64,000 nt of DNA from Brachyhypopomus gauderio. Lineage: Eukaryota > Chordata > Actinopteri > Gymnotiformes > Hypopomidae. The notes under the pieces are model-generated. The model did not search any database and had not been told where the DNA came from. It saw only the letters and a list, made by a program, of their open reading frames with translations. This document shows, one piece after another, positions 458-63,610 of the stretch (its first letter is position 1; every line of letters begins with the position of its first letter). Both the position numbers and the translations under genes were made by a program. The stretch is from NCBI RefSeq assembly GCF_052324685.1, contig NC_135212.1:8928778-8992777 (forward strand), in the 5' to 3' direction.

Positions 458-1420
458 CAGGCCCGTTGACAGTCTTGCTGGGGCCCGGGACAAGAAAGTT
501 TCATGTGCCCCCCCCCCACCCACGTCATTTGAATTTTCTCTGTAGCAGACAATCCTTGTGTTAGGTCATATAGTATATAATATAGCCACACATCAAAGCT
601 GTTTCTGACAGCTGACTGGTTTATATTTGACGCGTCGCGAACGGCGCGAGGATTCGCGAGGCGAAAATGAGGTAATCGCAGTGGCTTCGCCCGTGCGCGA
701 GGGCCTCACGCGCTGTCGATTCGCGAGGTCGTGCACCTCTCGAATTTTGTAACTTCGTCATGTTTGCAGGGTGCATACACCTTTACAAGGTGGAATTAAA
801 ACACTTGTACGTCACTTTAAAGGTCCATTTCAATATTTTCCAGCACGTTAAACTTAATTAAGTTAAATATTTAAACATACTCGAAATAATTCGCTTTTTT
901 ATCACATTATTTAATGGTGGTTTATTTCACAACAAACAGATATTTGTTGTGAAACAAAGTAGTTACAATTTCAAGCATTTTCAAGTACTTTAGCCTAAAT
1001 TCCAGAACTTTTCAAACCTGGAACACAATGCAACTTTAAAATTCGTCAGGTAAATGTTTTTCCTTTCTTTTCTGCGCTCCAGACTTCTGTATTTACTTTA
1101 ACTATCCACCACTGTATTTCCCGCTATTGGGCGGGTACCAGCCGGTTACGGTCGCTGGATCAATCCATTTTTCAGTGGTAGGCGGGGGTATGCACTTAAG
1201 TGTATGCACTTAATGGAAAATATGCAGATAGGTAAAAAACATATATTTTAGCCATTGAGCTTATTTTGAGTACATTATTTTATATTAATGAAAGATTTCA
1301 AGATTATTTAAAAATTATAGACTTTAAATAAAAAATAAATTGCTGGGCTCTTTGATGGGCCCCCCTGGCCCTGGGGCCCGGGACAACAGACCCGGTTGTC
1401 CCCCCCTGTCGACGGGGCTG
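458..1420 (+). mobile_element. hAT-type non-autonomous element, copy 1 (963 bp)
   Basis: The ends are imperfect terminal inverted repeats: CAGGCCCGTTGACAG at the left and, read inward from the right, CAGCCCCGTCGACAG. An 8-bp target-site duplication, ataataat (450-457 and 1421-1428), flanks it; 8-bp TSDs are the hallmark of the hAT superfamily, although this one lies in an AAT microsatellite and so is weaker evidence by itself. No transposase frame is present, so movement would need a transposase in trans. It includes a 10-base C run (508-517) and a GC-rich block (about 630-760) that recurs in the element at 60183-61084. A nearly identical copy lies inverted 159 bp to the right. Confidence 0.85.
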
Positions 1421-10247: not shown

Positions 10248-12094
10248 TTATTTGTCTAATGTGCTTTGCTGATAGGCGGAGATCTTATTCCTGTGTGATG
10301 GATTGAAACAGTATCCAATGGCCTGCTCTGCTTCCAAAATTCTCCTTTGGAAGCGGTCCCTGTCCCGAGCATGCTCCTCCCATGGCCCCTTACGAGACGC
10401 CTGATTGGCAAAGGACCAGGCCCACATCTTGTGAACCTCCACAACTGGAGAGAATCTCACCTGGAAGAAAAGAAAGAGTCAGAAAGAGGAAGTACAGCTT
10501 CAAAAAACATACAGAATGATAAAAAACAATTAAAATTAGTATAAAGGGTGTAGTTATATGATTAGGAACCATCACTTGCATGCAAAGTATTTTTTTAAAT
10601 TATATTAGTAATTATACAGTGTGAAACAGATAAATATTGTAAGCTGTATAAAAAGGTAAAAATAGTAGAATCGGACCTTAAATCATAGTAGAACTGATTC
10701 TTACCTTTTTCACAGGAGTCGAGTCCTTCTTTGAGCTGGCCTCAGTGGTCTTGTTTATAGGTCTTTTCCAGGGCACTTTTGAGGGTTTCTCCACAGACAA
10801 CTGAAGACACTGGTGACTGACGGCTCGCCTGGGCAGCACAGGGGGCTTTGTGGCTTTGTGTGCAGAGTCTCTCGTTACCTTTGAGCTTTGCTTATGGCAG
10901 TTGGGATCGCTGGTGTGACCACTTGTCCCGTTGCTAGCTGGACTGTGGAGAGGAGCTCTGAAATTCAGCGGGTGGTATGGGTCATCATCAAGGGATAGGG
11001 ACTTCCACAACGCCTCCTCTTCATCTTCTGAGGAGAAGGCCCCAGCATGCCCTTGCTCACCTGCATCCGAGCATGAAGACACACTTGTTTGCGATGCCGT
11101 GAACGTGTGACTCTTCTGAGGCACGCCAGAGCCTCTCTGCGTTCTCCTCTGGTCAGCAATTCCACTGGACACACACGCCGTGAAGTGCAGCGGGTGGTAT
11201 GGATCGGTGGATCTGGTAAGAAGGTCCCAAAGTCTGTCACTCTCCTCTTTGTCCCCATCCACACAGGAGCTGTCCGAGCCACCCCAGCTTACCTCACTGT
11301 CTGAACTCTGTCCTCCCAATTCCGGACGCCTGTCCTCAGAAGATGAACTGGAGAAATTACAGTAAAGTTCCGTGCGAGAATCATCATGCTTCTGGATGTC
11401 TTTCTGATAAAGACTCGACACACAGGCAGTGAAAGGAGCAGGGCGCACGTCCTCTGCACAACTGCGCTCCGAACCTGTAAGCAAATTCCAGTCAAAGCCT
11501 CGGTTCCAGCTGCAGTGCTCTCCGATGTAAAGCTCGTCGTTTTCCGACAGACACTCTGTTGCGCGGGACACAAAATCGTCCACCAAAGAGCAGCAAAGTT
11601 CGTCGTTAACCAGACTTGACAGAACGGACCTAGAATGAGAGTTTAGATCAAAGGGGTTTGAAAGAGGGTTTTGTCCCGCGACCATGACGTTTTTGTTCTC
11701 AAATAACGAGGAGAGAAAGCTGTCGGTGGCGTCTCCGGACGCACTCATGTGCTGAATGTGTTCTCCGGTGTCGTCCGTAATTCTCAGATGAACCTCAAAT
11801 CTGAACATTTGAAAGACTGAGGACCAAACAGAAAAAATAATAATCACGTTACGTTGCACATTTAAATTTTGAAGATGTACAAAATAAACTTTAAATAGAT
11901 GCAACATGCGCCATTCTATTGTCCAAATCTTACTTACCCGTCATCAAACTGTAACAGATTAACTGAACCAGCAGGCGTAAGTGTTCCCACAACACTCCCA
12001 GTATCTGTTTTGTCCACGGCAGAATCATCCCGCCGCCACCGACCCGCTGCATCGCGGACCTTTCGGTCCTCGCCGAACTCGTCACACTCTCCAT
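10248..12094 (-). CDS. ppp1r15b: PPP1R15B-like eIF2-alpha phosphatase regulatory subunit
   Basis: Three coding exons, 12094-11938, 11816-10705 and 10460-10248, join in phase to 493 residues. The product would direct PP1 to phospho-eIF2-alpha and so restore translation. Residues 23-65 form a hydrophobic/amphipathic N-terminal segment, fitting ER-membrane association. The middle is acidic and Ser-rich, with repeats of the type LW(D/K)xL...DPYHPLxF that occur in PPP1R15B. The PP1-docking motif KVRF (423-426) is split by the last intron, and the conserved RKGPWEEHARDRDRF block (446-460) is followed by AIGYC, again as in PPP1R15B rather than PPP1R15A. Introns are GT-AG (gtaagt at 11937, gtaaga at 10704). 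A minus-strand AATAAA at 9848-9853 may end the transcript. The start is the first ATG in frame with the N-terminal helix. Confidence 0.88.
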
Positions 12095-17460: not shown

Positions 17461-43166
<25,706 letters not shown>

Positions 43167-43234
43167 GGTGTCAGCTTGGATTTGCCATGTACATGGAGGA
43201 CCGTCAACAGTGGTACAGGTGGGTTATAAGAGGA

Positions 43235-51085: not shown

Positions 51086-51851
51086 ATAAGTTTCATTCAT
51101 AACCACTATTGTGATGATGAAGTGGTTTTGATGTTCAAAGCTGCTTCGTGATTAGCTCCATGCACACAACACAGGGCTCCCTTAATCACCATGACTATGG
51201 AGTGGAGATCCTTCAAACTCACCCCACATACTGTTGCTCCTTACAACTAGAATGGATTTGTATTCATGAGATGGTTTGATGCATGTCTCCAAAAACACTA
51301 ATACATTTTGCAGCCTTATGTGCATTTACATAAGCCTGGTTTAACTGTTCCTGTATAGTGGCAGCTTAATTGTTACCTCTTGATACTTTAACACGTCTAC
51401 CTTTTTGCAGGATGTGGTGAAATATCAGTACTTGCTATTGTATAACATTATTTTTATTCTTATAAAATAAAATTTCTTTTTATTCTTATTTTTATTATAT
51501 AAAACATGCATAGCTTTTTATTGCATTGTTGGCAACATAAACATTATCAACCATCCATTTGTACTTCTACCCATCAGGAAACACCAAAAACGTAGGTGTT
51601 TCCTCACCATAACCACTATTGTGATGGTTCTGATGAAGCGGTTTACAGAGGTGTTCAAAGCTGCGTGAGGAGTAGCTCCACGCACAGGTCCATATTTCAG
51701 TTTTTTGTGGCGTACCACAAAGTGTCTCCCCTAATCATCATGACTACAGAGCAAGGTTATAATAGTTTTGGATTTTTCATTATAGTTTAGTTTTTATTTC
51801 ATTGTGACTTTTTTTTCTAATTCAGTTAGTTTAGTTTTTAGAGCAGGTTTG

Positions 51852-52194
51852 TGTTACGGAACAGCTCCGGACCCTTCCCTGTGGGCGTGCCGCTACGTTG
51901 TCTGCATGTCGTTTTGTCCATGTTTGTACTTCCGTGGGTGTGGGTCGTTTGTGAGCGTGTTCGTTAGTGTCACCTGTGCCTTGTCTCGAGGTCACGTGGG
52001 TCTGTGTAATTCACCCATTTAATGTGCGTTCGCGCAGTGTTGTGTGCTCATCTTTGTCTAAAGTTCCGTGTCAGCGTGAGAGGTGTTTATGTGATGCTCG
52101 CGCTCCGCTCGGAGCTTACACGTCTGAGTCTGCAATAAATGTTAACTGTTCACCTACAACGTCGTGGTGCCTGCCTCCTTCACCCGCTGTTACA
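51852..52194 (+). repeat. 5' LTR (343 bp)
   Basis: TGTTACGG to TGTTACA, with a polyadenylation-like AATAAA at 52134-52139. Bounded on the left by the element's TSD. Confidence 0.7.
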
Positions 52195-53188
52195 TAAAGA
52201 CGAGCCAAGTACAGAGGACATATGCCAGGATACGCCACCCGGGCACCGAAGGGGAAAAGAAACCACGGCTCTTCCCCAGTCCGGCGCCGCGAAGTCTCTG
52301 TCACCGAGCAGGAGATGAAGCAGGACCTCACTCCTCCTGAAGAAGAGTTTGGGAGTGAGAAATCCGGAGAGGAGGAGAGTCTCCCCCCCCCCCGTGTTTT
52401 CCGACGAGGAGAGTGAGGGCGAAGCCAGCTGCCCTTCCCCCACGTCAGCGGCTCCCCAGGCGTCGGACGAGGAGCAAGAGACCAGCCTCACTCCACCGGG
52501 CTGCCCCGACGCCAACGAGCGCCCCGAGAAGGCAGAGGACGACGTCAGCCCTCCCCCATCCGTACACTCTGAGTCTACGGTGTACTATGGAGAGGGGGAG
52601 AACGTCAGTCCCCCTCCGTCCCTGAACTCTAAGACAACGGTGTACTACGAGGAGGGAGGGAGCGCCAGCCCACCTCCGTCCGTTTGTTCGACCCCTTCCG
52701 GGTTCGACAGCAGGAGCGAGGGAGAGGACAGCACCTCGGTGGGTTCGGCGGACACCGTGCAAGGAGAGAAAGGGTGTCCGCTAGGCAGAGATGCCTCTCG
52801 GGCTACGTCGGAGAGGAGCAGCATGAGCTGGTCGCGCTACCCAGCCTCGGACGAACCCATGTCCCTGGACCAGAGTGTCTCAGACGAGGAGGAGGAGCCC
52901 ATGTCCCTGGATCTGTGTGTCTCGGAAGGGAAGGAGGAGCCCATGGACACATCGAGGGACAAAGCACCGGTGACCCCGGTAGTGCGGAAGGGATCTGGCA
53001 CGGTCGGCGGTCCAAGGTGGGGGTTCCGCACGCCTCAGGAGACGCCATGGCGGTTCGCCGGCGCACGGCGCCGAGTCCCGGCTCCAGTGGCGCCCAAGAG
53101 GAAAGCCAAGGCTCCGCAGGGGAAGCTCTCAGGCGCAAGGACCAAGGGCGCACCGGGAGGAGCTGCGCGCGCCGGAGACCGGAGGGAC

Positions 53189-53494
53189 CAGGGCCGGCGC
53201 CAGAACATATACAGTGAGGGGGCGTCAGTATTTCGGGGGGGGGGGGGGGGGGGGGGGGGGCGAACGTAAGTAGTTGAGCGGGGGGTGGCGAACGTAAGTA
53301 GTTGAGCGGGGGGTGGCGAACGTAAGTTGTTGAGCGGGAGGGGGGGGGTGCGTGTAACGATTGTCGAGCGGCCGAGGGGGCGCCATGTAGCGATTTTTGT
53401 AAAATAAATGGGTCTTATTTTTTACATTGAGGGGGCGGGACACCTCGCCTGAGGGGGCGACGCCCCCATTCGCCCCCTCGTGGCGCCGGCCCTG
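53189..53494 (+). mobile_element. hAT-type MITE inside the LTR-element ORF (306 bp)
   Basis: Ends CAGGGCCGGCGCCA and its inverted match TGGCGCCGGCCCTG. Perfect 8-bp TSD ggagggac at 53181-53188 and 53495-53502. Contains a 26-base G run (53235-53260) and a 28-bp tandem repeat. No coding capacity. Confidence 0.9.
53261..53345 (+). repeat. 28-bp tandem repeat (cgaacgtaagtagttgagcg...)
   Basis: Three units, each 'cgaacgtaagtagttgagcg' plus a short G-rich tail; the third is degenerate. A related motif, 'caaacgtacgttgtagagcg', follows the G run in the hAT element at 60183-61084. Confidence 0.8.
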
Positions 53495-53785
53495 GGAGGG
53501 ACTCCGCCGCCTGTTCCGCCTTCCGCGCCCGTCAGCCTGCTTTCCCTGGAGGGACAGCGCCACCACTTGCGCTTTGGCAGGCAGCCCAAACACTGTCGTG
53601 GTTGCCTGTTCCTGTTTGTATGTCTGCCCCTGTGTTTCTCCCGAACCCCCTGTTCCCTTTTGTGCCCTTTATGTTCTGTGTTCCAGTGTGCGTGTTTGTG
53701 CTTGTGCCTTTGTTTAATGTATTTTCCCCTGTCTTCCCAGGGAGGGTGTGCTAGAGCTGGTCGCGGCGGTTCCCGCCGTCGGGGG

Positions 53786-53907
53786 AGCGTGAGAGGTGTT
53801 TATGTGATGCTCGCGCTCCGCTCGGAGCTTGCACGTCTGAGTCTGCAATAAATGTTAACTGTTCACCTACAACGTCATGGTGCCTGCCTCCTACACCCGC
53901 CGTTACA
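53786..53907 (+). repeat. 3' LTR, 5'-truncated (122 bp)
   Basis: Matches 52073-52194 with about 4 mismatches in 122 bases; the first 221 bp of the LTR are missing. Homology begins at AGCG directly after the purine tract gggg, consistent with a deletion joining the purine tract to the LTR interior. Confidence 0.75.
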
Positions 53908-55130
53908 GTTTGCTAGTTTTTATTAGTTTTAGTTATTTTTTAAGCTTAGTTTTAGTTTAGTTTTCATTAGTTCTAGTATTAGTTTTAGTTTTTTATACTT
54001 TGGGTTATTTGTCAAGTGCAGGATTCAAAAAGTTCAAAGTAAATATTGTGAATAAAAACAAAATATACCATTTTTAAAAATGCATTCAATTACTGTTGAA
54101 CAACCAACAGTCCACAATATAGAAGCCTTAAGTGTGCAAAATGTGTAATATTGCTGCTGAAAATTGCCAGACTAGGATAGACGATCATAGGAGCGTAACT
54201 CTATTTTGGTTCCTGTGAAAAGCCAAACTTTTTGAAGGCACCGCAATCGGGTCACACAGTCGTGTGGACATCCAGTCTCAACACATTAACTAGTGCATCC
54301 ACCCGCTTGCGGTTTTCCTGCATATTAACTAGCCAGCAGCTATTTGATCACTGGTGAAGACGGTCCAAAATGGTTCTCCTTCCCGGTACTACCTAGCCGG
54401 GATGGTGCTTCTCTTTTGGCGGAGCTACTCAGAGGCTAGCTTGTCATGGTACTGACAGTTAGCCCTATTGTGTGAGCTATGAGATTTGTGGGGTTTTTCC
54501 TCTTGAGAACTACTCCATATATTTTATCACCCGTTTCCACTACAAGACATGTAGTCTTTCTCGTAGTCATATTAAAAACAACCCATACAGGACTCGCCGT
54601 TTTCTCCCAACGTTTGTTGTCGTAATTTTGCAGCTAGCATGGCGTGCAGGAGCGCTAAACAAGAGACAATGTGACGGACCATGCGGTGCCGGTGTTCTGC
54701 CCGCTAATGTAAAACTTCTAGTGAAAAAAATCCATTTATAAATAAACTGACAAACACGAAAACGAAGGGCATCCTATCTATAGTTTCAGAACGTTTTAGT
54801 TAGTTTTCTAAACATGTAATAGTTACAGTTAGTTATCGTTTTTTCTTTTAATTTTCGTTTATTTCTGTTAACGAAAATGGTTTTTCAATATCAGTTTGCT
54901 TTTTCTTTCGTTTTCGGTAACGATTATAATCTTGCTACAGAGGACCCTTTAATACTTTATATATGAATTACATAAAAATGCACTCCTTTATAAGCGGCAG
55001 CGTAAATATTACATCTTAATAAAGTATTAAAGTATTATGTTGCCACTCATAGGAGCATCTTAAGCTTTGTGCAGGGCGTGGTGAATGAAATATCAGTACT
55101 AATTATTGTATAACGTTACTTTAACGTCAT

Positions 55131-61514: not shown

Positions 61515-62516
61515 TAGGGTTGTCCCGATTCGATATTTGGATCAGATCGGCTGCTGATATTAGCAAAAAATGCGTATCGGTATCGGATCGGCAGGCACGA
61601 GAAAATGCCGATCCAGACTCCCGCGTTTTCCAGCGCACCCATTTAGATAATCCATTCCAGTTTTTGCTGTGGTTTTGACAGTGAGAGTAAAATCCGGTCC
61701 GTATTTTCCAGCACACCTTCAGCACACGAGCATAGCGTCTGCCCCAATTTAGCTCCGTGGCATCTCGGACCGCCGTGTAAATTTGAAGTTATCGGTAAAA
61801 ATGTCAGTTGTGTGGGATTATTTTACCTTAAAGGATGACAAAGACGAAGAGGTAGAGTGCAACATATGCCACAGTAAAGTCAAGCGTGGTGGTAAAGCTG
61901 TAAGAACTTTTAATACCACCAATCTAATCAAGCATTTAGCGAAATACCACCATAAACAACATGACGAGTTTCTAAAGAAAACCGAAGACAAAAAGAAAGG
62001 TCCTACACAACTAACACTGGCAGAAACGTTTGAATTGAAGGGAGTGTATAGATGGGGATGGAGCAGCAAAGTGTGGAGTAGAAGGCATTCCAACTGATGG
62101 ATGTTAATGTTAATAGACTATTTTCCACTCAGGTTGTGTGTTTTGCTTTTTTAATATAATTTACAATATTATTTGCACTTGTGGCTTTTTAATCCTTGGT
62201 TTACTGATGCTATTTCTGTTTGTTATTTAATATTTTGTCTATTTTGAGTTTATTAATTGCTAAATAAACAGGTCAGTTTCTCCTTACCAACCATTGTGTA
62301 TTATTCAAACACACCTAATTCAGCTGGCTACTTGTTATCAAGAGTAAAACGCTTTTCAACATGAGTTTGACAACAAAGTAAGTTGGCTAAATAACTTTAA
62401 ACTTTAATACATGCTCGGATAGGCCGGTATCGGTATTGGCCGATATCGGTATCGGAAGTGCAAATAAATATCGGTATCGGATCGGAAGTTCAAAAAGCTG
62501 GATCGGGACATCCCTA
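61515..62516 (+). mobile_element. hAT element with BED finger inside Tc1 transposase (1,002 bp)
   Basis: Ends TAGGGTTGTCCCGATTCGAT and GGATCGGGACATCCCTA. Perfect 8-bp TSD gtgtgtac at 61507-61514 and 62517-62524. Many 'tatcggtatcgg' subterminal repeats at both ends. Internally deleted: only the N-terminal part of a transposase remains. Confidence 0.92.
61801..62097 (+). CDS. Truncated hAT protein: BED zinc finger only
   Basis: 98 codons from ATG 61801 to TGA 62095-62097. The BED-type finger has CNIC (first metal pair), a Thr/Asn linker TFNTTNLIKHL and HLAKYHH (second pair), as in ZBED proteins and hAT transposases. The catalytic DDE and hATC dimerisation parts are missing. It could bind DNA without transposing; expression is unknown. 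Confidence 0.6.
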   Translation: MSVVWDYFTLKDDKDEEVECNICHSKVKRGGKAVRTFNTTNLIKHLAKYHHKQHDEFLKKTEDKKKGPTQLTLAETFELKGVYRWGWSSKVWSRRHSN

Positions 62517-63610
62517 GTGTGTACTACTCCCTTCAGAGGAGAGCACAGACAGGCTCTAACCAGAGTAGAAGGAGAAGTGGAAGGCCCCGCTGCACAACTG
62601 AGCAAGAAGACAAGTACATTAGAGTCTCAGGTTTGAGAAATCAACGCCTCACAGGTCCTCAACTGGCAGCTTCATTAAATAGTACCCGCAAAACGCCAGT
62701 GTCAACATCTACAGTGAAGAGGCGACTCCGGGATGCTGGCCTTCAGGGCAGAGTGGCAAAGAAAAAGCCATATCTGAGACTGGCTAATAAAAGAAAAAGA
62801 TTAATATGGGCAAAAGAACACAGACATTGGACAGAGGAAGATTCGAAAAAAGTGTTATGGACAGACGAATCAAAGTTTGAGGTGTTTGGATCACACAGAC
62901 AGACATTTGTGAGATGCAGAACAACTGAAAAGATGCTGGATGAGTGCCTGACACCATCTGTCAAACATGGTGGAGGTAATGTGATGGTCTGGGGTTGCTT
63001 TGGTGCTGGTAAAGTGGGAGATTTGTACAAGGTAAAAGGGATTTTGAATAAGTAAGGCTATCACTCCATTTTGTAACACCATGCCATACCCTGTGGACAG
63101 CGCTTGATTGGAGCCAATTTCATCCTGCAACAGGACAATGACCCAAAGCACACCTCCAAATTATGCACAAACTATTTAGAGAAGAAGCAGGCAGCTGGTG
63201 TTTTATCGGTAATGGAGTGGCCAGCGCAGTCACCAGATCTCAACCCCATTGAGCTGTTGTGGGAGCATCTTGACCGTATGGTACGAAAAAAGTGCCCATC
63301 AACCCAATCAAACTTGTGGGAGTGGCTTCTGGAAGCATGGGTTGAAATTTCTCCAGATTACCTCAGCAAATTAACAGCTAGAATGCCAAAGGTCTGCAAT
63401 GCTGTAATTGCTGCTAAGGGAGCATTCTTTGATGAAAGCAAAGTTTAAAGTAGAAAATTATTTCAAATAAAAAAAAAACATTATTTCTACCTTGTCAATG
63501 TCTGGACTATATTTCTATTCATTTTGCAACTCATTTGATAAATAAAAGTATGAGATTTCAGGGCAAAACACAAAATTGTCTAGGTGACCCCAAACTTTTG
63601 AACGGTAGTG

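What the first reader, a model, noticed from the sequence alone, without database searches (positions are those of the whole stretch)
51852..53907. LTR retroelement without pol that carries an unrecognised long ORF
The element has TG..CA ends, a 5-bp target duplication and a gypsy-like 3' junction, but no protease, RT or integrase. Instead it codes an acidic Ser/Pro-rich protein with internal repeats, then a basic region and a hydrophobic end. It is the best candidate here for an undescribed element type or captured gene.
Basis: partly seen in the sequence, partly recalled or inferred. Interest (0 to 1): 0.7.

Follow-up and report, generated by a model that had tools for sequence, protein, structure and literature searches.

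The report
Self-priming retroelement family with own protein
A broken copy of a large family of small jumping genes, probably in a fish, that lack the usual copying enzymes, appear to start copying from their own folded RNA, and carry a conserved protein that matched no known family we could search.

Summary
The element at 51852-53907 is real: TG..CA ends, a perfect 5-bp target duplication (GTTTG), a 343-bp 5' LTR and a 5'-truncated 3' LTR. This copy is dead: a 306-bp hAT-like MITE sits in the ORF, the frame shifts at a C-run, 234 nt of ORF are missing, and the true 3' junction is deleted.

It belongs to a large family in its own genome. A PBS pattern occurs 1,650 times (reversed control 27), and 37 of 40 such places examined carry the same protein start. 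In 9 of 12 places the element is about 2.0-2.5 kb, with no room for pol. Some copies are young (LTR pairs 1/341 and 1/338 different).

The protein (459-527 codons in four open copies) gives no credible Pfam or PDB match. It is under purifying selection (N-terminal dN/dS 0.14-0.46 in 8 disjoint pairs). A 10-nt LTR segment pairs with the PBS, and the predicted RNA fold closes there in both siblings folded. Six autonomous chromoviruses of the genome use a different, equally matched decamer.

Best reading: a non-autonomous, Tf1/sushi-like self-priming LTR family, moved in trans, with a selected accessory or Gag-substitute protein. Helper and protein function are inferred.

The parts
51847..51851 (.). 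5-bp target-site duplication GTTTG, left copy
51852..52194 (+). 5' LTR, 343 bp, TGTTACGG..CTGTTACA
   Evidence: 39 further LTR matches scored in the genome (40 of 2753 candidates scored, this one included); aligned with 19 others
52017..52024 (+). TATA-like ATTTAATG, seen in nearly all of 20 aligned LTRs (promoter role inferred)
52046..52055 (+). self-primer decamer GCTCATCTTT (GCTCGTCTTT in most siblings), inferred RNA 5' end
   Evidence: 9 of 10 pairs in this copy
52134..52139 (+). AATAAA polyadenylation signal
52196..52205 (+). PBS decamer AAAGACGAGC, complementary to the LTR decamer
   Evidence: sibling folds
52222..52416 (+). start piece of the element's protein (MPGYATRAPKGKR...), leaves the frame at the C-run 52383-52393
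   Evidence: N-terminus shared by 37 of 40 PBS places
52394..53188 (+). main piece of the protein: acidic Ser/Pro-rich with 20-aa repeats, then basic
   Evidence: aligned with 7 siblings
52537..52656 (+). two 60-nt (20-codon) tandem repeats, 75% alike
53181..53188 (.). 8-bp target duplication GGAGGGAC of the nested MITE, left copy (right copy 53495-53502)
53189..53494 (.). nested hAT-like MITE, 306 bp, ends CAGGGCCGGCGCCA..TGGCGCCGGCCCTG (hAT label recalled)
   Evidence: similar pieces in L013, L020, L023, L024
53599..53754 (+). hydrophobic C-terminal piece (WLPVPVCMSAP..FSPVFPGRVC, stop), read by eye
   Evidence: same end in 5 of 7 sibling proteins; dN/dS about 0.1-0.4 in divergent pairs
53785..53786 (.). 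deletion breakpoint: 117 nt of internal 3' end plus 221 nt of the 3' LTR missing against L009, L010, L011
53786..53907 (+). 3' LTR remnant (122 nt)
53908..53912 (.). 5-bp target-site duplication GTTTG, right copy

Best explanation
The window holds a decayed copy of a large family of about 2.0-2.5 kb non-autonomous LTR retrotransposons that appear to use Tf1/sushi-type self-priming. Shown: paired LTRs with 5-bp TSDs; a PBS decamer directly after the 5' LTR that is complementary to a decamer inside the LTR, just downstream of a TATA-like box; a PPT before the 3' LTR; one ORF starting shortly after the PBS; no pol in the copies spanned; young copies; and selection on the ORF. Inferred: the transcript starts at the LTR decamer, folds back onto the PBS and is nicked to make its own primer; reverse transcriptase and integrase come in trans from one of the abundant chromoviruses of the genome; and the element's own protein acts mainly on the RNA that encodes it (packaging, particle targeting or membrane association), since otherwise selection could hardly keep it in a non-autonomous family.
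For: PBS pattern 848+802 places against 15+12 for the reversed pattern. The protein N-terminus follows within 351 nt at 37 of 40 examined places; strict PBS+ATGCC pattern 115+140 against 0+0. A second LTR ends 1.63-2.20 kb after the first in 9 of 12 places. Pairing: 7 of 11 family copies have 10 of 10 Watson-Crick pairs, the other 4 are off at one position (L023 judged by eye); predicted RNA folds close by that helix in L013 and L010 (z -3.2 and -3.6, 0 of 200 shuffles each). Of 8 chromovirus 5' regions fetched, 6 held both motifs, and in 6 of 6 a different decamer pair matches 10 of 10: six positions differ, on both sides. Purifying selection: whole-frame dN/dS 0.28-0.37 between subfamilies and 0.40-0.41 for L024 against the window and L009; 0.14-0.46 in 8 disjoint N-terminal pairs, pooled codon-position differences 96/81/165; alignment made on DNA alone still shows third-position excess in 3 of 3 pairs (p 9e-3 to 3e-7). 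Indels keep the frame between L009 and L024 (3, 33, 60, 39) and L009 and L011 (3, 60, 39). Recent activity: LTR pairs differ at 1/341 (L009), 1/338 (L013), 3/337 (L027). Chromoviruses: 150 of 150 scored SH3_Tf2-1 matches over the cut-off, many in frames over 1,100 codons; a Chromo domain at one 3' end (E 8.4e-9).
Against: No helper with this PBS was found: 0 places with the PBS followed by a chromovirus-like ATGGAYCC start (reversed control 0+1; its positive control never got an answer), and no autonomous LTR seen resembles this one beyond its ends. With CpG, TpG and CpA sites masked only 1 of 10 pairs keeps p below 0.05; the near pairs window/L009 and L013/L027 show no significant excess at third positions, nor do L043/L013 and L057/L030. 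L013/L027 and L012/L013 have dN/dS 0.68 and 0.79. Frame-breaking indels occur in L010, L012 and the window, and several sampled N-termini hold stops. No RNA or protein data exist here. The window copy pairs at only 9 of 10 positions and its fold is ordinary (z -0.9, 35 of 200 shuffles as stable). 3 of 12 places showed no second LTR within reach.
Confidence: 0.72

Rival explanations
1. The ORF is a highly diverged Gag: a TR-GAG-like element whose protein forms or joins particles, derived by deletion of pol from a chromovirus.
For: It is the first ORF after the PBS, and its length (459-527 codons in 4 full open copies) is near fish gag lengths (mostly 300-500 aa, a passage of PMC11117352); basic stretches could bind RNA.
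Against: No gag or zinc-knuckle match at E<=1 in 7 proteins or among 18 N-termini; no CCHC motif in 7 proteins; chromovirus frames of the genome start differently, with ATGGATCCAGC soon after their PBS in L071, L072 and L076; mostly low-complexity.
Confidence: 0.25
2. The ORF is a captured host gene carried by the element (transduction).
For: No similarity to any element protein searched.
Against: No host counterpart could be looked for; subfamilies are down to 40-45% identical over the frame, so any capture is old.
Confidence: 0.08
3. The open frame is a by-product of GC-rich, stop-poor sequence and drifts neutrally.
For: 10 of 500 shuffles give as long an open run; masking CpG-type sites leaves 1 of 10 pairs significant; near pairs show no significant excess at third positions.
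Against: Transversions alone show uneven codon positions with most at the third in 7 of 10 pairs, which share sequences and are not independent (p 4e-6 to 2e-2); 8 of 8 disjoint N-terminal pairs have dN/dS below 0.5; frame-keeping indels; the same start, layout and hydrophobic end across subfamilies.
Confidence: 0.03

Closest known systems
Tf1/sushi-type self-priming chromoviruses (Tf1 and Tj1 of fission yeast; vertebrate Tf1/sushi group, the latter recalled)
   Same: PBS next to the 5' LTR complementary to the inferred RNA 5' end (described for Tf1/Tj1 in PMC4600332, passages read); LTR ends of siblings (TGTTACG..CGTTACA) fit the Sushi motif TGTYANR..CNTNACA, but equally the rGmr1 motif TGTNANR..CGTNACA (PMC3601003, Table 3 passage); 5-bp TSD.
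   Different: No gag, protease, RT, RNase H, integrase or chromodomain found in this family; one unrelated protein instead.
TR-GAG, LARD and TRIM non-autonomous LTR elements (PMC6022998, passages read)
   Same: LTRs, PBS and PPT without pol, so mobilised in trans.
   Different: TR-GAG needs a GAG domain (not found); LARD and TRIM carry no domain, whereas this family has a selected ORF. With no recognised domain, copies of 2,000 bases or more would fall into the catch-all LARD bin of that scheme.
LTR elements with additional ORFs (bdelloid rotifers, PMC5408684, abstract read; plant Retand, PMC11963269, passages read)
   Same: An extra ORF of non-gag/pol kind kept by an LTR element.
   Different: There the extra ORF accompanies gag and pol; here it stands alone.

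Membership tests
LTR retrotransposon | Paired LTRs with TG..CA ends, TSD, PBS and PPT | tested here: met
   Window: LTRs and TSD. Of 9 two-LTR siblings, 6 have an exact 5-bp TSD (L009, L012, L013, L014, L024, L027; by eye); L010 has 4 of 5, L011's 3' LTR is cut short, L023 none. PPT before the 3' LTR in siblings and in 8 of 12 further places.
Tf1/sushi-type self-priming element | PBS complementary to the RNA 5' end | tested here: inconclusive
   Complementarity to an LTR decamer is met (7 of 11 fully, 4 off at one position; folds), but that the RNA starts there is inferred, not measured.
Tf1/sushi-type chromovirus | RT, integrase and chromodomain in the element | tested here: not met
   No Pfam match in 4 window frames or 7 sibling proteins; 9 of 12 elements span only 1.63-2.20 kb from LTR end to LTR end, 3 of 12 undetermined.
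TR-GAG | A recognisable GAG domain and no pol | tested here: not met
   No gag family at E<=1; sequence profiles only, a diverged capsid fold is not excluded.
LARD / TRIM | No coding domain | tested here: not met
   A conserved, selected ORF, though without a recognised domain.
Ty3/gypsy superfamily by RT phylogeny | RT groups with Ty3/gypsy | not testable with these tools
   No RT was found in the element; assignment rests on LTR ends, PPT and self-primer.

The most novel reading that the evidence does not exclude
A protein-coding parasite of retrotransposons: a vertebrate LTR family that lost or never had pol, kept its own self-primer evolved in step with its LTR, and survives by encoding a dedicated protein that diverts the helper's particles or enzymes to its own RNA, much as a satellite virus uses a helper virus.
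Probability: 0.3. Interest if true: 0.82.

Novelty: new variant of a known kind. Interest (0 to 1): 0.62.

Why it matters
Non-autonomous LTR elements are usually seen as passive deletion products. Here a family of perhaps 1,500 copies, some very young, keeps an unknown protein under selection and its own self-primer. It raises the questions why such a parasite needs a protein, how cis-preference arises, and how a 10-nt primer and its binding site change together. The copies are a ready natural data set for self-priming in a vertebrate. Whether the family exists in other fish was not tested.

Tried and rejected
Rejected: ORF length as proof (10 of 500 shuffles as long). tRNA priming: no TGG directly after the LTR, by eye (no tRNA comparison was run), while the self-complement is conserved. 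U3 homology to an autonomous element (1 of 500 shuffles as good): withdrawn, because the matching piece in L077 is a neighbouring LTR of this family's type cut by the autonomous insertion (TSD GTGTG; the autonomous LTR starts TGTCAGGAACAGC). Weak hits DDE_3 (E 0.0058, below cut-off, 1 of 18 members) and NETI (2 of 18, best 0.16), iota-carbonic anhydrase (E 0.0019 over the basic start), a CopG-like regulator (0.14) and surfactant protein B (0.47), and three Bagel or cell-surface chains (0.067-0.34) are treated as chance or composition.

Led nowhere: viral-contig scans, plasmids, genome contigs, Rfam and tRNA scans, structure prediction of the main window piece (mean pLDDT 50.3, pTM 0.19). Literature: nine searches listed no title or abstract start describing such a family; most listed papers were not opened, and subscription journals and Repbase reports are not held, so 'undescribed' is limited to that.

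Not answered: the genome search was busy. Hence the positive control, a count of the 3' junction and a protein search of the genome are missing.

Full report
What was checked. The element at 51852-53907 has a perfect 5-bp target duplication (GTTTG), a 343-bp 5' LTR (TGTTACGG..CTGTTACA) and a 122-nt remnant of the 3' LTR with 4 differences, K2P 0.034. Four open frames of it match no Pfam family at E<=1. The window is part of contig C2 of a 796.5-Mb assembly of 840 contigs. I take it to be a vertebrate, probably a ray-finned fish; this is inferred from a PPP1R15-like frame, a Tc1-like transposase, genome size and its many chromoviruses, and no call names the species.

The copy is dead. Against siblings L009, L010 and L011 it lacks 234 nt of ORF. 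Its start piece (52222-52416) and main frame (52394 on) meet at a C-run (52383-52393). A 306-bp hAT-like MITE with an 8-bp duplication splits the frame. In the same three siblings 117 nt stand before the 3' LTR that are gone here, with the first 221 nt of that LTR.

The family. A search with the LTR scored 40 of 2,753 candidates, all 40 matching, the window's own included, several as pairs about 1.9-2.04 kb apart. I fetched 20 regions. Nine held two LTRs of one element (L009-L014, L023, L024, L027); L017 held a further pair of another subfamily plus a separate 3' LTR; ten held LTRs whose flanks show a 5-bp duplication as solo LTRs do (L015, L016, L018-L022, L025, L026, L028; by eye). LTR pairs differ at 1/341 (L009), 5/341 (L010), 10/300 (L011), 2/338 (L012), 1/338 (L013), 6/341 (L014), 24/330 (L023), 2/105 (L024), 3/337 (L027), 33/336 (L017, rough boundaries) and 0/59 (L029, only the tail of its 5' LTR was fetched). 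So some copies are very young while having no pol.

Self-priming. Directly after the LTR stands (G/T)AAAGACGAGCC, which does not begin with the TGG expected opposite a tRNA 3' end (recalled). Its decamer is complementary to GCTCGTCTTT, a block nearly invariant among 20 aligned LTRs and about 28 nt downstream of TTTAATG. Of 11 copies with both sides in hand, 7 pair at 10 of 10 (L010, L012, L013, L014, L017, L027, L030); the window, L009, L011 (a G-U) and L023 (by eye) are off at one position. An exact-match count agrees: 10 nt in the same seven, 9 in L011, 6 in L009, and only chance 5-nt runs elsewhere in the LTR for the window and L023. RNA folds from the decamer to the PBS close by this helix in L013 (-57.3 kcal/mol, z -3.2) and L010 (-56.0, z -3.6), 0 of 200 shuffles as stable in each; the decayed window copy is ordinary (-44.5, z -0.9, 35 of 200). 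These three were all that I folded. The mechanism is the one described for Tf1 and Tj1 (PMC4600332, passages read).

Scale. The pattern GTYACADAAAGACGAGYC with up to one mismatch occurs 848+802 times against 15+12 for the reversed pattern. I fetched 351 nt at 40 of the first 41 perfect places on C1; the other one is in L029, fetched longer. Of the 40, 37 carry the protein's N-terminus (34 with an MPGY-like start, 3 with a decayed start: L033, L065, L068; several hold stops), and 3 do not (L032, L055, L061). L032 is the same place as L030, where the ORF start lies about 1.6 kb further on. Extrapolated from perfect places on one contig, about 1,500 copies. The strict pattern PBS + ATGCC occurs 115+140 times, control 0+0. 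For 12 of the 40 I fetched 1.2 kb downstream: 9 of 12 have their second LTR end 1.63-2.20 kb after the first (L045 by a 20-nt match of the tail only, L057 by a weaker one, score 30 over 48 nt); 3 (L038, L042, L050) show none there. The nine have no room for pol.

The protein. Open as they stand: L009 459, L013 515, L027 515 and L029 527 codons from the start, L024 456 codons without the start, L017 406 codons from the second codon, L030 162 codons. L010, L011, L012, L014 and L023 have broken frames. The layout is shared: MPGY...KGK...HHxSSP, a stretch that looks helical by eye, an acidic Ser/Pro part with 20-aa repeats (SPPPSxxSxxTVYYGEGE), a basic part, and in 5 of 7 proteins a hydrophobic end ..FNVFSPVFPGRV.; FSPVFPG is also seen in 8 of 12 downstream stretches. 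Net charge by 40-aa blocks runs plus, minus, plus, then about neutral in the proteins with both ends. L017 lacks the hydrophobic end, and L031 and L067 lack part of the helical-looking stretch. Pfam: 0 of 7 proteins at E<=1; of 18 N-termini one weak sub-cutoff hit (DDE_3, 0.0058) and two to NETI, best 0.16. PDB profile searches gave none or hits that I take for composition or chance.

Selection. Whole-frame dN/dS (Nei-Gojobori): window/L009 0.49, window/L024 0.40, L009/L024 0.41, L011/L009 0.63 and 0.23 (two pieces), L013/L027 0.68, L012/L013 0.79, and between subfamilies 0.28-0.37 at dS 1.5-2.1, near saturation. The hydrophobic end has dN/dS of about 0.1-0.4 in the divergent pairs (for example L013/L009 dS 0.97, dN 0.11), but one amino-acid change and no silent one in L013/L027 and in L012/L013. 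For the N-terminal 85 codons, 8 disjoint pairs give 0.14, 0.29, 0.22, 0.19, 0.37, 0.46, 0.39, 0.35; pooled differences by codon position 96/81/165 (p 2e-8), transversions 39/33/61 (p 0.007); L043/L013 and L057/L030 show no clear third-position excess on their own. Against: near pairs (window/L009, L013/L027) show no significant excess, and masking CpG, TpG and CpA sites leaves 1 of 10 pairs below p 0.05 (L013/L009, 0.041). For: transversions alone are significant in 7 of 10 pairs (p 4e-6 to 2e-2; not window/L009, window/L024, L013/L027; the pairs share sequences), and alignments made on DNA alone keep the excess in 3 of 3 pairs tried. Indels between L009 and L024 (3, 33, 60, 39, apart from L024's lost start) and L009 and L011 (3, 60, 39) keep the frame; L009/L010, L012/L027 and window/L009 include frame-breaking ones; L013/L027 has none in the ORF; the distant L029/L024 alignment is too ragged to judge.

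The helper. The genome is rich in chromoviruses: 150 of 150 scored SH3_Tf2-1 matches pass the cut-off, 1,765 candidates, many frames over 1,100 codons. Of eight 5' regions fetched, six show the PBS AATACTTCGC with GCGAAGTATT upstream, 10 of 10 pairs in 6 of 6; L074 showed neither, and L077 only the LTR part. The two kinds of element thus differ at 6 of 10 primer positions, each matched on the other strand, which is covariation in support of self-priming in both. One 3' end fetched carries a chromodomain. But no element with this family's PBS and a chromovirus-like gag start was found (0+0, reversed control 0+1), and no listed SH3 place on C1 lies just downstream of a listed PBS place (both lists partial; by eye). 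The helper is thus inferred.

How it works, most likely. Shown: anatomy, copy number, youth, complementarity, selection. Inferred: RNA start, nick by RNase H, help in trans, cis action of the protein. The last follows from the argument that a freely shared protein would not be kept open in a non-autonomous family; this argument is general and was not tested here. A diverged Gag is the strongest rival.

Compared with the known. By the scheme in PMC6022998 (passages read) it is neither TR-GAG (no GAG domain) nor truly LARD or TRIM (it has a selected ORF). By priming it sits with Tf1/sushi elements. Its LTR ends fit the Sushi motif but equally the rGmr1 motif in PMC3601003 (table passage), and the window's own 5' LTR end (TGTTACA) departs from both by one base, so the ends do not decide. 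Extra ORFs in LTR elements are known beside gag and pol (PMC5408684, abstract). I file it as a new variant of a known kind.

Noticed in passing
window 53189-53494: hAT-like MITE of 306 bp with 8-bp TSD and an internal 28-nt minisatellite (GGCGAACGTAAGTAGTTGAGCGGGGGGT); similar pieces occur in L013, L020, L023, L024.
   Followed up: partly
window 10678-11940, - strand: Open frame with a PP1c-binding domain (PF10488, E 1.8e-11), like PPP1R15 (name recalled).
   Followed up: no
window 62468-63052, + strand: Tc1-like transposase piece (PF01498, E 1.7e-16).
   Followed up: no
window 42033-43223, - strand: 396-codon open frame without a credible Pfam match; may be a host exon.
   Followed up: no
L029 83-1663: The ORF looks chimeric: N-terminal half like L024/L009, C-terminal half like L014, suggesting recombination between subfamilies (by eye).
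   Followed up: partly
G000:C6:34064238-34080904: Four PBS places on one strand spaced 7345, 1941 and 7344 nt, a likely duplicated segment with tandem elements sharing an LTR.
   Followed up: no
L080 about 815-1390 (reverse strand reading): Tandem array of a 29-nt unit TTTACATTGGTCCATTCATCACCATCACA beside an autonomous chromovirus.
   Followed up: no
L077 1327-1411: An autonomous chromovirus has inserted into an LTR of this family's type, with TSD GTGTG.
   Followed up: partly
L017 4851-5191: A 3' LTR preceded by the family's PPT, with no matching 5' LTR in the 4.8 kb fetched upstream and no open frame of 150 codons there.
   Followed up: partly
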